This document shows, one piece after another, positions 7,402-24,635 of a stretch of DNA of 64,000 nt. Position 1 is the first letter of the stretch. Each line of letters starts with the position of its first letter. Under the pieces are notes generated by a model. The model searched no databases. It was not told the origin of the DNA and saw only the letters and a program-made list of their open reading frames with translations. This stretch comes from Clostridiales bacterium (GTDB taxonomy: Bacteria > Bacillota > Clostridia > Saccharofermentanales > Saccharofermentanaceae), in contig JAFXMZ010000028.1 in the NCBI GenBank assembly GCA_017529925.1, positions 1 to 64,000 on the forward strand. The letters are read 5' to 3'. Position numbers and translations under genes: made by a program.

Positions 7402-7431
7402 CGGATCATTCATCAGTTGGAGGGAAATAAT

Positions 7432-9120
7432 ATGATCAGAAAGATCTCCGCAGTCCTGATATCTATCCTCATATGCCTGTCGTTAATACCGGCAAGCCTG
7501 TTTTCTGTTTCCGTAAATGCGGACGTTTCAGCCTCGGATACAGTCGAGATCCTTTCTCATGTTAAATATGACCAGACTTCTGCACGCAAGGTGCTTGATG
7601 ATATCAATGCATTCAGGACCGGCAGCGAAGCTTATTACAATCTTTCTGACGGTACTGTCTACACCTGTAAGGATCTTAAACCGTTAAGATATGATTATTC
7701 ACTCGAGAAGATCGCTATGCAGAGAGCTGCTGAACTCATCGTATGCGAAGGTCATACAAGGCCTAACGGGCAGGGATGCTTTACAGTAACATATGACGGA
7801 GTCCATTCAAGCGGTGAGAATATCGCATATGCTTCATGGTCCAGCTTTAATCCCGTAGGCATGTGGAAAGAGGACGGTCTTCCTTATGAAATGCAGGGAC
7901 ACAGGAGGAATCTCCTTTCGACATGCAACTCATGTGCATTAAGCTGTGTTATTGTCGACGGCGGGAGCTACTGGGTAATGGTACTTGGCAATATTGACCC
8001 TTCCAAAGCGATCGCGGCAACACCTGTATGCGATTCGGAAAAGGATGTTAAAGTCGAGATCTCTTCTGCAAATATAAGCGCTATCAGCTTAAGCCGTTCA
8101 GGTTCAGGGATCCTGACGATCAATAACAATCCTGTGGATCTGTCATCCGGGACTGTATATATCAGATCAGGAGAAAGATATTTCCCCGTGTCGAAAGGCA
8201 GCATCTCCTTTACTTCAGATGATCCTTCGGTAGCCATAAACGGATCAAAGATCTCCGCTTCCTCATCCGGAAGCCACAAGATAAGGATCAATATAGGAAA
8301 TGCTTCCGGGGATACTGTCTTAAGGACAGTCCGGGAATCTACATATGCAGGCCCTACTCGCAATCACAATGTACTTCAGTTCGTAAACAGACTATATACG
8401 GTCGTTCTTGAACGTGAAGGTGATGACGCCGGTCTTACCGACTGGACCGATAAGCTCCTTTCAGGTCAGATGTCCGGCAGGGAAGTGGCATGGGGATTCT
8501 TCAATAGCCCCGAATTCGCCTATAAGCTCATGACTGACAGGGAATTCCTGAAGATCCTCTATAATACTTTCTTTGACAGAGAGCCAGATGCTGCCGGAGT
8601 CAATAACTGGATGAATGCCATATATGGTGGCGGAAGCAGCTGGCAGGATGTATTCAATGCTTTTGCTCATTCCCGGGAATGGGAGAATCTCTGCAAGAAG
8701 TTCGGTATCATCCCTTATGACGGATATCAGGGAACGATCGATGTTGTCGATCCTCCCGCAGCATCTATGGAGCAGATACAGGCCTTTTCGACAAGATTAT
8801 ATACAACATGTCTTAAGAGAGATCCTGATGAGACAGGGATCCAGTACTGGACTGATATGATCGCAACAGGTCAGCGTTCAGGCTCTGAAGTTGCATACGG
8901 TTTCTTCTTCAGTGATGAACTTACATCAAAGGGGCTCGACGACGGCGAGTTCGTCAACAGGCTCTACAGGACATTTTTCGACAGGGAAGCTGATCCGGTA
9001 GGATATGAACACTGGACAGGACTTCTTAGGAACGGCTCATCAAGGCTCGAAGTCTTTAATGGCTTTAAAGGGTCTCAGGAATGGGCAGGTATATGCAGCA
9101 GATACGGAATAAGAATATAA
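7432..9120 (+). CDS. Secreted CAP-domain protein with two DUF4214 domains
   Basis: 562 aa from the ATG at 7432. An in-frame TTG at 7417 lies on the GGAGGG ribosome binding site and is rejected. A signal peptide is clear (basic start, hydrophobic core to about residue 25, Ala sites after). A CAP/SCP domain covers about residues 45-190: VCEGHTRPNG, GENIAYASW and the GHRRNLLS segment are its signature blocks. After a linker of about 100 residues come two DUF4214 units, each a pair of half repeats of type RLYxxxLxRxxDxxGxxxW and FFDREPDxxGxxxW. CAP proteins are secreted and often bind cell walls or lipids; DUF4214 has no settled function. A second protein with the same domains in reverse order is at 23174. 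Confidence 0.9.
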   Translation: MIRKISAVLISILICLSLIPASLFSVSVNADVSASDTVEILSHVKYDQTSARKVLDDINAFRTGSEAYYNLSDGTVYTCKDLKPLRYDYSLEKIAMQRAAELIVCEGHTRPNGQGCFTVTYDGVHSSGENIAYASWSSFNPVGMWKEDGLPYEMQGHRRNLLSTCNSCALSCVIVDGGSYWVMVLGNIDPSKAIAATPVCDSEKDVKVEISSANISAISLSRSGSGILTINNNPVDLSSGTVYIRSGERYFPVSKGSISFTSDDPSVAINGSKISASSSGSHKIRINIGNASGDTVLRTVRESTYAGPTRNHNVLQFVNRLYTVVLEREGDDAGLTDWTDKLLSGQMSGREVAWGFFNSPEFAYKLMTDREFLKILYNTFFDREPDAAGVNNWMNAIYGGGSSWQDVFNAFAHSREWENLCKKFGIIPYDGYQGTIDVVDPPAASMEQIQAFSTRLYTTCLKRDPDETGIQYWTDMIATGQRSGSEVAYGFFFSDELTSKGLDDGEFVNRLYRTFFDREADPVGYEHWTGLLRNGSSRLEVFNGFKGSQEWAGICSRYGIRI

Positions 9121-13711: not shown

Positions 13712-14989
13712 ATGGAAAACAGGATCGAGACAAAATGTCTTCATGCAGGCTGGACGCCTAAGAATGGTGAGCCCAGACAGGTACCTATCTATCAGAGCAC
13801 AACATTTAAATATGATTCGAGCGATGATATGGGTAAGCTATTTGACCTTGAGGCTTCCGGTTATTTCTATTCCAGGCTTCAGAATCCGACTAATGACTAT
13901 GTAGCTGCTAAGCTTACGGCTCTTGAGGGCGGATATGCAGGTATGCTTACATCATCCGGTCAGGCAGCTAATTTCTTTGCTGTATTCAATATCTGTGAAT
14001 CAGGCGATCACTTTATCGCATCTTCATCGATCTATGGCGGAACATATAATCTTTTCGGTGTAACTATGAAAAAGATGGGCATCGAGTGCACATTCGTCGA
14101 TCAGGATGCTTCATATGAAGAACTGAAGGCTCAGTTCCGTCCCAATACAAAGTGTATCTTCGGTGAGACTATCACAAATCCTACATGTTCCATCATCGAT
14201 TTTGAGAAGTTCTCAAAGCTCGCTCATGAGATGGGTGTTCCTTTTATCGTTGATAATACATTCGCTACACCTGTGAACTGCCGACCTATCGAGCACGGTG
14301 CAGATATCGTTACTCATTCAACGACTAAGTATATTGACGGACATGCTTCAGGTATCGGCGGAGCTATCATTGATTCCGGTAATTTCGACTGGATGAAGTA
14401 TGCGGATAAGTTCCCCGGACTTACTACACCCGACGAATCCTACCACGGACTTACTTATGCTACAAAGTTCGGAAAAGCAGCCTATATCACAAAGGCAACT
14501 GCACAGCTCATGAGAGATTTCGGTGCTATCCAGGCCCCTCAGAACGCTTATTATCTGCAGCTCGGACTTGAATCTCTCCATGTTCGTATGCAGAGACATT
14601 GTTCCAATGCCCAGAAGCTCGCTGAGTTCCTTGAGAACGATGACCGTATCGCATGGGTTAATTATCCCGGTCTCAAGTCCAGCAAGTATTATGATCTTGC
14701 CCAGAAGTATCTTCCTAACGGAACATGCGGCGTTATGTGTTTCGGACTGAAGGGAGGACGTAATGTTTCTGTTAAGTTCATGGACAACTTAAAGCTCATT
14801 TCTATCGTAACTCATGTTGCTGATGCAAAGAGCTGCGTTCTCCATCCCGCAAGCCATACTCACAGACAGCTAACTGACGAACAGCTCCTCGAAGCAGGTG
14901 TTGCTCCTGATCTTATAAGATTCTCTGTAGGTCTGGAGAATGTTGATGATCTGATCGATGATATCAAGCAGGCTCTGGATAACATCTGA
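13712..14989 (+). CDS. metY: O-acetylhomoserine aminocarboxypropyltransferase (sulfhydrylase)
   Basis: 425 aa, Cys/Met metabolism PLP enzyme. It forms homocysteine from O-acetylhomoserine and sulfide. The PLP lysine motif THSTTKYIDGHA lies near residues 206-217, the N-terminal QVPIYQSTTFKY and SRLQNPTND blocks and the C-terminal CVLHPASHTHRQLTDEQL are characteristic of MetY rather than MetB/MetC. Length fits MetY (about 425-430). The ATG is preceded by AAGGGAG. It stands alone between pmbA and a terminator-like hairpin, facing vanZ convergently. Confidence 0.93.
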   Translation: MENRIETKCLHAGWTPKNGEPRQVPIYQSTTFKYDSSDDMGKLFDLEASGYFYSRLQNPTNDYVAAKLTALEGGYAGMLTSSGQAANFFAVFNICESGDHFIASSSIYGGTYNLFGVTMKKMGIECTFVDQDASYEELKAQFRPNTKCIFGETITNPTCSIIDFEKFSKLAHEMGVPFIVDNTFATPVNCRPIEHGADIVTHSTTKYIDGHASGIGGAIIDSGNFDWMKYADKFPGLTTPDESYHGLTYATKFGKAAYITKATAQLMRDFGAIQAPQNAYYLQLGLESLHVRMQRHCSNAQKLAEFLENDDRIAWVNYPGLKSSKYYDLAQKYLPNGTCGVMCFGLKGGRNVSVKFMDNLKLISIVTHVADAKSCVLHPASHTHRQLTDEQLLEAGVAPDLIRFSVGLENVDDLIDDIKQALDNI

Positions 14990-15011
14990 TACTTCAGACT
15001 GATACTAAATG

Positions 15012-15042
15012 ATGCCCGGCTGGTACAGATACAGTCGGGCAT
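15012..15042 (+). terminator. Terminator-like hairpin after metY
   Basis: ATGCCCGGCTG (15012-15022) pairs with CAGTCGGGCAT (15032-15042) with one G-T pair. There is only an AT-rich tail, no T run, so termination may be incomplete and the array downstream may be transcribed. Confidence 0.55.
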
Positions 15043-15188
15043 ATATTATGGATCAATATTATTTTGATAATCAAAGTATTATACAAAAGATGATATTGAT
15101 GTTATTGATTATCCGGTAAGTATCATTAGGGATCTGTCAGGGCAGATCGTGCGATGAGCATAAACGATAAGATAGTATTCGTGTAATA

Positions 15189-15382
15189 GGTATACTAAAA
15201 ATGAATAATCATGTGATTAGTATACCTGAAAGAGCGAATCAGTATACTAAATAAAAAAAATTGAAAGATCAGTATACCAAATCTTCAGATCCGATATACT
15301 TATTATTAGATAATAAAGATTTAGTATACTGGAAAAGATAATCAGGTATACCAAATTCAAGAAGATTAACTTTTAGTATACC
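15189..15382. repeat. Periodic array of eight GTATAC palindromes (22/14-bp alternating spacing)
   Basis: Eight 8-bp sites of consensus RGTATACY sit at 15189-15196, 15219-15226, 15241-15248, 15271-15278, 15293-15300, 15323-15330, 15345-15352 and 15375-15382. Seven keep the core GTATAC; the fifth is GATATACT. Gaps are exactly 22, 14, 22, 14, 22, 14 and 22 bp, a strict 52-bp period, close to five helical turns, so all sites face nearly the same side of the DNA. The spacers do not resemble each other, so this is not a recent tandem duplication; spacing and site are what is kept. It lies between the 3' ends of convergent metY and vanZ, so it is not an obvious promoter operator. Within the 574-base gap nothing else gene-like is seen; 15043-15188 is AT-rich with a small GATCTG/CAGATC hairpin at 15131-15148. 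Confidence 0.95.
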
Positions 15383-15455
15383 CGGTTAATTAACACAACA
15401 GAAGTTGAGCAAATAGGATCCGTAGATAGTCCAAATCGTATAGGTATATTCCGGA

Positions 15456-15492
15456 ATCAAAAGAGGCATCGATTCACGACGCCTCTTTTGAT
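15456..15492. terminator. Bidirectional terminator-like hairpin between the array and vanZ
   Basis: ATCAAAAGAGGC (15456-15467) pairs perfectly with GCCTCTTTTGAT (15481-15492). The A/T-rich arms give T runs on either strand. It would end vanZ-side transcripts and shield the array. Confidence 0.7.
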
Positions 15493-15562
15493 CCACTTAT
15501 ATGTTTTAATATAAATCTCTTCTTCTCAATTCACCAAAATTGTAATTATACCGAATTAGGTG

Positions 15563-16105
15563 TCAGAGATTTCCTTCGTAACGATACTCTTCTTTTCCGA
15601 TCTCCTTGAGATAGATAAGGAATCCGATCCTGATGATCAGCAGTACTACGACTATGCCGATCATATCGATACATGTGTCAATGATCGATCCGTCCCTTCC
15701 GTCAACGAATAGCTGATAGTATTCATCAAATATCGAACATAATACCGTAAACCATAATGTCATACCGATATACATCTCATTATCGGATTTCATCATCTTA
15801 ACGTGACTCTCTGCATATGATGTCTCAGGGCTTATCTTATTTGTGAATCTGATTGATATGAATGTAAATATAGTCAGGATAGCGTATTCCGTTACATGTG
15901 CTATTTTCCGGACAAGTGTTATATTAGTCAGTTTCACTCCTGTAAGCGAGTTTATGATATTGATAATATCATTACTTCTTTCAGATGATTCGGTTCCATT
16001 TTCGCCCGATAGTTTGAATATCAAAATAATCCATACGGCAGTAATGATCCATGAAATTATGGACGATGCCAGATAGAATTTTGAGATATTACGTTTTTTG
16101 CTCAT
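15563..16105 (-). CDS. VanZ-like family membrane protein
   Basis: 180 aa with four hydrophobic segments. VanZ-family marks are RKIAHVTEYAIL (near residue 65) and DEYYQLFVDGRDGSIIDTCID, matching the RKxAHxxEYxxL and DExxQxFxxGRxGSxxD signatures. VanZ of Tn1546 gives low-level teicoplanin resistance, but chromosomal relatives are widespread with no proven role, so resistance should not be inferred. It is the last gene of the - strand run, nine bases after smpB. Confidence 0.85.
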   Translation of the reverse strand: MSKKRNISKFYLASSIISWIITAVWIILIFKLSGENGTESSERSNDIINIINSLTGVKLTNITLVRKIAHVTEYAILTIFTFISIRFTNKISPETSYAESHVKMMKSDNEMYIGMTLWFTVLCSIFDEYYQLFVDGRDGSIIDTCIDMIGIVVVLLIIRIGFLIYLKEIGKEEYRYEGNL

Positions 16106-23173: not shown

Positions 23174-24541
23174 CTATCCCACCAGTATCATTACGGCATA
23201 TCCCTCGGATGATCCGTCAGGCGTAAATACACCGACACCGATCCTGCCGTAACTAGATTTTATCATATTACCGTAATGAGTGGCAGAATTCCTCCAAGCA
23301 TTAAAGAAAGTATCACCGGAGTATTCGGAAGAAGATGCTATATTCTCACCTGCGACCCTGTAGGAGATTCCCTTAAGAAGATCCTTGAGACCTGATCCGT
23401 CGGGTCTGTCATGAGAGAAGTTGATGGCGATCTCCATAGCCCTTTTCCTGGCTACTGCCCTGAGATCTTCATCGATGGTGAGAGACGGCGAACCGACTCC
23501 TGCACGGAGGTTATTGATAAGGCCGCAAGTCTGCTGTTCGACTGAATAGTCAAATGTACCCTGTACGAGTTTTCTCGATCCGTCACTGTAGCTGATGATA
23601 AATGTCATCTTGGAAGGCTTGATCGGATCTGCCGATACAGATGCCGGGATTATACCGTACGTCAGACATTTATTCCTGAATTCCGTTGAATCTGCAAATC
23701 CGTAAAAAAGAGTATCTATGCTTCTGTTCTCTTTTAACCTTCCGGCCCAGTAGTCGACCTCTGAAGCGGCAGGAACACGGTTAAGAAATACTTTATAGAA
23801 CAACCTGATGATATCAGCATCAGATTTCGACGCGAATAGCTTCGCGAACTCGGGACTGTAGAAAAATCCTCTGGCGGCGTCCTTTCCGGTTATCTTCAGC
23901 GATGAAAGATTATTGCACCAGTTATCAAATCCGTTCTGATCAGGATTTCTGCCCAATACATCAAGATAAAGCGAAGTAACAAAAGTCTTTATCCCGGTCG
24001 AAACAGGAACGTTTATAGTAGGCTTGGCTGTTCCTCCGGATACTATACCGAATCTCAGACAAGTATTTGCCCACTCCGTGGAATTAATGAATCCTTCGAG
24101 GATCTCTTCATAAGATATTCCCTTATTAACGATCTGATCCTTCCAGATATTAAAACCTCCCTGATCAGGCTCTCTGTCAAAGAACACCCTGTAAAGGATC
24201 GTCAGATATGTATCAACGTCATATTTTTTCTTAAGGAACTCTTCAGAGAAGAAAAAACCTCTGGCGCAGTTAGCTCCATCAATACTTCCGGAAGCAAGCT
24301 TGTCACACCAGTCGATAAAGCCTTTCTGATCATAATTCCTGCCGAGAGCGATCTTATATAGTCTCGCTACAAACCCGCCTACTCCTGAAGATGCATCATA
24401 TGAAGCATCTGTCAAAACAGTATTCTCATAGGATCTGACAGGAATATCCTCTTTTTCAACAGAAGCCGCATTCAGAGATACTCCGAAAGAGCTGACAATA
24501 CAAAACGCTATAAGCGAAGAAACGGCCTTGATCATCTTCAT
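23174..24541 (-). CDS. Secreted protein with two DUF4214 domains and C-terminal CAP domain
   Basis: 455 aa from the ATG at 24541, with GGGG seven bases upstream; an upstream TTG at 24556 is less likely. The signal peptide ends near the NAAS site. Two DUF4214 units follow (FVARLYKIALGRNYDQKG with FFDREPDQGG, then TSLYLDVLGRNPDQNG with FLNRVPAASE). A C-terminal CAP domain carries SHDRPDGSG, AGENIAS and NMIKSSYGRIGVG. The domain order is the reverse of the protein at 7432. An AT-rich promoter-like stretch precedes it (24573-24600), and zapA follows 13 bases after its stop. Confidence 0.88.
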   Translation of the reverse strand: MKMIKAVSSLIAFCIVSSFGVSLNAASVEKEDIPVRSYENTVLTDASYDASSGVGGFVARLYKIALGRNYDQKGFIDWCDKLASGSIDGANCARGFFFSEEFLKKKYDVDTYLTILYRVFFDREPDQGGFNIWKDQIVNKGISYEEILEGFINSTEWANTCLRFGIVSGGTAKPTINVPVSTGIKTFVTSLYLDVLGRNPDQNGFDNWCNNLSSLKITGKDAARGFFYSPEFAKLFASKSDADIIRLFYKVFLNRVPAASEVDYWAGRLKENRSIDTLFYGFADSTEFRNKCLTYGIIPASVSADPIKPSKMTFIISYSDGSRKLVQGTFDYSVEQQTCGLINNLRAGVGSPSLTIDEDLRAVARKRAMEIAINFSHDRPDGSGLKDLLKGISYRVAGENIASSSEYSGDTFFNAWRNSATHYGNMIKSSYGRIGVGVFTPDGSSEGYAVMILVG

Positions 24542-24635
24542 TCGACTACCCCGCAAAATGAATTCGTGTGTATATAATGATTATATTATATATAAAGAGA
24601 TAATTCGCTTAAAGATATTTGCTGTTTTCGAACCG

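What the first reader, a model, noticed from the sequence alone, without database searches (positions are those of the whole stretch)
15189..15382. Rigid 52-bp-period array of GTATAC palindromes in a convergent gap
Eight RGTATACY sites have gaps of exactly 22, 14, 22, 14, 22, 14 and 22 bp, while spacer sequences are unrelated. Conserved phase (52 bp is about five helical turns) with non-conserved filler is the mark of selection for cooperative protein binding along one DNA face. It lies between two gene ends, so ordinary promoter control is unlikely. Possibilities are a chromosome-organising or partition site, a plasmid- or integrative-element-derived centromere, a recombination array, or a nucleoid-protein loading site. 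It matches neither parS nor DnaA boxes.
Basis: seen in the sequence. Interest (0 to 1): 0.88.

Follow-up and report, generated by a model that had tools for sequence, protein, structure and literature searches.

The report
Dispersed repeat arrays with private nucleases
The regular row of short palindromes is one of at least 13 copies in this genome of a repeat array that matches, word for word, an array beside the gene of an unnamed predicted DNA-cutting protein; related bacteria carry many such protein-array pairs, each with its own word but the same 52-base spacing, a pairing not described in the sources I could search.

Summary
The array is real: eight sites at exact 30/22-bp steps, seven GTATAC and one GATATAC. 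It is not a single site. This genome holds 13 GTATAC arrays built of 38-bp dyads plus 14-bp linkers. The spacers are not random filler: they carry A/T tracts in helical phase. Relatives keep the 52-bp architecture with different words. Neighbour-gene clustering exposed the partner: an unnamed ~265-aa protein with a C-terminal PD-(D/E)XK-like nuclease domain. Of 72 such genes, 58 have a dyad array at the gene, against 2 of 150 control genes; all five full-length copies in this genome have one, each with its own word. The window's word is that of the array beside the copy at C8:16694-17485. Orphan-array words match gene-linked words of the same genome (P<0.0002), and the protein's beta-hairpin (residues 31-62) tracks the word. 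The window array is most likely an orphan copy of a nuclease's private binding array, in lifestyle like REPIN-RAYT repeats but with unrelated parts. Binding, cutting and copying are inferred, not shown.

The parts
15189..15382 (.). Orphan dyad array, four units of 38 bp with three 14-bp linkers, period 52 bp
   Evidence: R1 covariance-model matches at 15190-15277 and 15294-15381
15189..15226 (.). Unit 1, GGTATACT-22-AGTATACC
15241..15278 (.). Unit 2, AGTATACT-22-AGTATACC
15293..15330 (.). Unit 3, GATATACT-22-AGTATACT (the one imperfect core)
15345..15382 (.). Unit 4, GGTATACC-22-AGTATACC
13712..14989 (+). Upstream neighbour: Cys/Met metabolism PLP-dependent enzyme; its 3' end faces the array
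   Evidence: PF01053, E 8e-127
15563..16105 (-). Downstream neighbour: VanZ-like protein; its 3' end faces the array
   Evidence: PF04892, E 6e-14
15005..15060 (+). Strong hairpin behind the PLP-enzyme gene, between that gene and the array
   Evidence: -21.7 kcal/mol, z -4.1; the consensus scan found no terminator here
15450..15500 (-). Strong hairpin with flanking A/T runs behind the VanZ gene, between that gene and the array
   Evidence: -28.8 kcal/mol, z -7.2; the consensus scan found no terminator here

Best explanation
The array is an orphan (gene-less) copy of the private DNA-binding array of an unnamed PD-(D/E)XK-like nuclease. In this genome the matching gene is most likely C8:16694-17485, which has a five-unit GTATAC array about 265 bp upstream. 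Proposed mechanism: the N-terminal coiled coil with its beta-hairpin (residues about 31-62) reads the word; protein dimers sit on successive dyads along one face of phased-A-tract, intrinsically bent DNA, so a short array builds one wrapped complex. Beside the gene, just upstream of a likely promoter, this would regulate the nuclease. Elsewhere, copies of the array (12 outside the gene locus here, more than 20 in one relative) persist behind gene 3' ends as non-autonomous repeats that the nuclease, or repair at its cuts, has copied, in the way REPINs depend on RAYTs. Shown: architecture, copy number, gene linkage, word matching within genomes, hairpin-word association, presence/absence at the same gap in relatives. 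Inferred: binding, bending, autoregulation, cleavage, and nuclease-driven copying.
For: Thirteen GTATAC arrays in the genome; two pairs 98-99% identical over 231 and 320 bp at different places; more than 20 near-identical copies with mosaic flanks in G116. Partner found without prior assumption: a protein cluster in 7 loci, all 7 genes within 141 bp of an array. 58 of 72 family genes have a linked dyad array against 2 of 150 control genes, and one of those two turned out to be an orphan array carrying the word of this genome's C22 nuclease. All five full-length family genes of this genome have private arrays. Orphan words match gene-linked words of the same genome: 7.70 against 4.17 +/- 0.41, 0 of 5000 permutations. 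Partial Mantel: residues 31-62 track the word after controlling for the nuclease domain (0 of 2000 permutations; residues 1-30 weakly, P 0.03; the rest not); orthologues with 98% identical nuclease domains but different words are 43% identical there. A/T-tract phasing. AlphaFold pLDDT 94-96; Foldseek top hits of the domain are nearly all PD-(D/E)XK nucleases; PADLOC PDC-S68 nuclease domain E about 1e-24. The same gap in five relatives lacks this array.
Against: No binding, cutting or transposition experiment. Orphan words of G012, G029, G105, G058 and some of G102 and G038 found no partner gene. Foldseek E-values are only about 1e-3 and the canonical (D/E)xK lysine is not obvious. No target-site duplication or terminal repeat was recognised at array edges, so how copies arise is unknown. 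In this genome the cognate array lies about 265 bp from its gene, farther than most. The word-protein correlation is modest (r 0.15) because most pairs are distant.
Confidence: 0.72

Rival explanations
1. The arrays are regulatory operators only. The protein binds its own array to control its gene; orphan arrays are relics of lost gene copies or passive duplications and have no role in copying.
For: Of the 58 linked arrays 49 are 5' of the gene, and TATAAT-like hexamers are enriched upstream of the start (43 of 52 against 25 expected). Copies arising by recombination would need no special mechanism, and no transposition signature was seen.
Against: Orphans far outnumber genes for some words (12 to 1 here, more than 20 to 1 in G116). 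Many arrays per word keep exact spacing while spacers diverge, which relics would not.
Confidence: 0.2
2. Defence or addiction system: the nuclease attacks DNA, and chromosomal arrays sequester, mark self or tune it; private words keep paralogues orthogonal.
For: The nuclease domain is shared with PADLOC candidate PDC-S68 and with a PD-DEXK defence model; many paralogues per genome with mutually distinct words.
Against: No known defence neighbourhood was seen in the flanks examined; some orthologues stay at the same locus in several species, unlike mobile defence genes.
Confidence: 0.2
3. Chromosome-organising or partition array bound by a host nucleoid or ParB-like protein.
For: Phased A-tracts, helical lattice, dispersed copies.
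Against: The word changes between species and between arrays of one genome while the lattice stays; linkage to a nuclease family, not to parAB; presence/absence at the same gap among relatives.
Confidence: 0.06
4. The array acts as RNA: a repeat-RNA antitoxin as in type III toxin-antitoxin systems, or a row of hairpin terminators.
For: Arrays are mostly 5' of a nuclease gene; some units fold well (unit 1 here -12.4 kcal/mol).
Against: Within species the arms do not covary and loop complementarity is at or below expectation; 10.4-bp A-tract phase is a double-strand feature; no Rfam match; promoter-like hexamers lie close upstream of the genes; two of four window units barely fold.
Confidence: 0.05

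Closest known systems
REPIN-RAYT (REP elements and the TnpA_REP tyrosine transposase; PMC3116915, PMC8049555)
   Same: Dispersed extragenic palindromic repeats without genes, each family tied to a gene for a DNA-cutting enzyme beside which copies also lie; several families per genome; words differ between lineages.
   Different: The partner is not an HUH/Y1 transposase but a PD-(D/E)XK-like protein; the repeats are arrays of double-stranded dyads on a 52-bp lattice with phased A-tracts, not single-strand hairpins; up to 13 paralogues per genome.
BIME-2 elements of enterobacteria
   Same: Arrays of palindromes with alternating fixed spacings in extragenic DNA.
   Different: No REP consensus; species- and array-specific words; linked to a nuclease gene.
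Type III toxin-antitoxin systems (ToxIN, AbiQ)
   Same: Short tandem repeats just upstream of a nuclease gene.
   Different: Only dyad arms are conserved, not whole repeats; no RNA structure signal; no ToxN-type protein match; many gene-less copies.
PDC-S68 and other proteins ending in the same nuclease domain (AAA-type ATPases)
   Same: Shared C-terminal nuclease domain.
   Different: Those are about 1,200 aa; here the domain is joined to a small coiled-coil beta-hairpin module and to arrays.
Plasmid centromeres with iterated sites (SopC-like, ParR-parC-like; recalled, not tested by sequence)
   Same: Iterated sites in helical register beside the gene of the binder.
   Different: No ParA/ParM-type partner seen; many chromosomal copies; nuclease domain.

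Membership tests
REPIN-RAYT | Partner is a Y1/HUH tyrosine transposase | tested here: not met
   Partner has no Pfam or NCBIfam match and a predicted PD-(D/E)XK-like fold
REPIN-RAYT | Repeats fold as conserved hairpins whose arms covary | tested here: not met
   No arm covariation within species; loop pairing at or below expectation
REPIN-RAYT | Dispersed extragenic copies whose word matches copies beside the partner gene | tested here: met
Type III toxin-antitoxin | Repeat RNA structure, toxin of the ToxN fold | tested here: not met
CRISPR-Cas | Identical repeats with unique spacers, cas genes | tested here: not met
   Only 8-12 bp arms repeat; spacers carry phased A-tracts; no cas-like cluster recurs among the neighbours
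ParABS / chromosomal parS | ParA and ParB genes with the site | tested here: not met
   The only cluster found solely beside arrays is the nuclease family
ParABS / chromosomal parS | One centromere region near the origin | tested here: inconclusive
   13 arrays on 10 contigs speak against one region; position relative to the origin could not be mapped on the draft assembly
Restriction-modification | Cognate methyltransferase beside the nuclease | tested here: not met
   No recurrent methyltransferase cluster among neighbours in 7 linked loci
PD-(D/E)XK nucleases | Fold | tested here: met
   Top Foldseek hits of the domain are DrdV, Bax1, R2 endonuclease, OkrAI; PADLOC PD-DEXK model; E-values near 1e-3, so moderate
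PD-(D/E)XK nucleases | Complete active site, catalysis | tested here: inconclusive
   E163 and D193 invariant, E208 at least 90%; the lysine is not assigned; activity not testable here
Rfam RNA families | Match to a curated RNA family | tested here: not met

The most novel reading that the evidence does not exclude
A previously unrecognised class of intragenomic replicator: a PD-(D/E)XK-like nuclease whose variable beta-hairpin reads a private DNA word, and which maintains and spreads bent, helically phased dyad arrays of that word through its own chromosome. It would be a REPIN-RAYT lifestyle built from unrelated parts, with a large natural series of protein-word pairs.
Probability: 0.45. Interest if true: 0.92.

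Novelty: categorically new. Interest (0 to 1): 0.85.

Why it matters
An unnamed protein family present in 81 of 85 genomes of the genus, in other genera of its family, and in a second family of the class is tied to DNA arrays that keep one geometry while the word changes freely. If the protein reads the array, this is a compact, naturally diversified DNA-recognition module with dozens of ready word-protein pairs, and a second independent case of a nuclease living with its own population of chromosomal repeats. It also explains a class of otherwise puzzling intergenic sequence in these bacteria.

Tried and rejected
Hairpin/RNA reading: arm covariation and loop complementarity tested, not supported; no Rfam match. 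Search for the exact GTATAC lattice in GTDB r220 and IMG/VR: only one other genome (RGIG8162) and no virus, which first suggested a unique element until a degenerate pattern and a covariance model showed other words. Terminal inverted repeats and target duplications at array edges: none recognised. Mosaic flanks in G116 first looked like an insertion sequence; the common core is the array alone. Overall protein identity against word similarity: no trend below 60% identity, so region-wise tests were used. Plasmid, phage and IMG/VR searches returned only the shared nuclease domain or partial, distant matches. PDB by sequence: nothing. Literature: searches on nuclease-linked repeats returned only REP/RAYT work or nothing relevant; the library is open-access only, so a prior description elsewhere cannot be excluded.

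Full report
Observation. The eight sites and the 22/14 alternation are exactly as described; one core is GATATAC. The lattice does not occur in 100 shuffles of the window. The gap lies between the 3' ends of a Cys/Met PLP enzyme gene and a VanZ gene, each followed by a strong hairpin on the array side (the simple consensus scan did not call them terminators), so the array is probably outside both transcripts (inference).

Not one site but a family. The same genome holds 13 GTATAC arrays of four to six units. Arrays on intact contigs start and end with the 30-bp step, so the unit is a 38-bp dyad with a 14-bp linker and a 52-bp period. Spacers are homologous between arrays; two pairs of arrays are 98-99% identical at different places. 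In relatives the same lattice carries other words: GTGCACCAAA, GTGTATCAAA, ATGCACTAAA, GTATGTCAAA, TTTTACACCA and more. A covariance model of two units found arrays in 37 of 85 genomes of the genus. One genome can hold several words.

The filler is not filler. Across units of this genome and of seven others, five A/T tracts per 52 bp fall at about 10.4-bp phase; the power at 10.4 bp is 5.9 and 7.8 against 0.6 and 0.8 when bases are shuffled within spacers. This is the classic signature of intrinsically curved DNA (general knowledge; see also PMC3940949). Within species the two arms of a dyad vary independently and loops are not complementary beyond expectation, which favours a double-stranded protein site over a hairpin.

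Where arrays sit. Of 86 arrays with genes on both sides, 33 lie between convergent genes and 7 between divergent genes, against 23 and 66 of 178 other gaps (P 5e-6 and 3e-7). The corresponding gap has no such array in G010, G015, G017 and G001 and, by eye, an array of a different word in G033.

The partner. Clustering all proteins around arrays gave one cluster found only beside arrays: 7 loci, all 7 genes within 141 bp. The proteins (about 265 aa) match no Pfam or NCBIfam family. AlphaFold gives a confident model (pLDDT 94): an N-terminal pair of long helices joined by a beta-hairpin, and a C-terminal domain whose best structural matches are PD-(D/E)XK nucleases such as DrdV, Bax1 and the R2 endonuclease, and which also matches the nuclease end of PADLOC PDC-S68. 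The family occurs in 81 of 85 genomes of the genus, in other genera of its family and in another family of the class; gene-linked dyad arrays are visible there too by eye, in some cases with longer periods.

Linkage. An automatic dyad-lattice detector finds an array at 58 of 72 family genes and 2 of 150 control genes; 49 of the 58 are 5' of the gene. This genome has five full-length family genes, each with its own word: GGTATACTA (C8), CCTGTACTAAA (C35), TTCATCCCAAA (C21), TCTTCTACTAAA (C25), TGTTATCCG (C22). Orphan arrays exist for at least three of these: 12 for GTATAC including the window's, one for CCTGTACTAAA (L149), and one for TTATCCG, which surfaced among the controls. Over 24 distinct orphan words in 17 genomes, similarity to the best gene-linked word of the same genome is 7.70 against 4.17 +/- 0.41 when genomes are permuted, 0 of 5000. 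Some words (GTGCACCAAA, GTGCACATA, GTGGACTAA) found no partner.

The reading part. After controlling for nuclease-domain identity, word similarity follows residues 31-62, the beta-hairpin region (partial r 0.15, 0 of 2000 permutations; residues 1-30 weakly, P 0.03; other regions not). Orthologues G121 and G026 have nuclease domains 98% identical, different words, and 43% identity in 31-62; same-word pair G032/G005 is 77% identical overall but 93% there. This supports, but does not prove, that the protein reads the array.

Mechanism. Most likely the protein binds dyads cooperatively on bent DNA, regulates its own gene from the linked array, and orphan arrays are its non-autonomous dependants. 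The first step is supported by anatomy and covariation, the second by position upstream of promoter-like hexamers, the third by copy number and recent duplicates. Cleavage and copying are inference.

Comparison. The lifestyle is that of REPIN-RAYT (PMC3116915, PMC8049555), but enzyme fold, repeat structure and reading mode differ, and two defining features of that family fail. I therefore rate it categorically new in its parts, with the caution that the literature library is open-access only and that the way of life, if confirmed, would be a known one.

Noticed in passing
L165, L161, L162, L168, L183 and others: 60-130 bp upstream of family genes: A second, word-independent motif, TGAGACYAGTCTCA followed about 20 bp on by AGTCTCA, lies between array and gene in 15 of 52 family genes. 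It suggests a common regulator of nucleases that have different arrays.
   Followed up: partly
L044:6773-6911 and L048:1-141: The same insertion-sequence end (product starting MAQINLTLSEK) abuts GTATAC arrays at two places and truncates one; arrays may be insertion targets, as REPs are for some IS.
   Followed up: no
G116 loci L094-L113: More than 20 near-identical arrays embedded in mosaic repeats with inverted modules (GCGAAGCGACGAGGACTGAAGCGAGCAAGCGGTCGCGAGCC).
   Followed up: partly
L089:888-1285: One array switches word midway (GTGTATCAAA to TCTATCAAA) while keeping the lattice; L080 likewise. Possible intermediates of word change.
   Followed up: no
L161, L162, L165, L173: The family gene sits beside the same neighbouring gene in several species, yet its array word differs: vertical inheritance with word turnover.
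   Followed up: partly
G012, G029, G105, G058 orphan arrays: Words GTGCACCAAA and GTGCACATA have no matching family gene found in the same genome.
   Followed up: partly
window 7417-9120 and 23174-24556: Two large secreted-type proteins that look like CAP-domain proteins with DUF4214-like repeats (from their sequence, not scanned) on opposite strands.
   Followed up: no
G000:C23:18783-19073, C27:166737-167078 and C8:820-1152: Three weaker relatives sharing only the nuclease domain.
   Followed up: no
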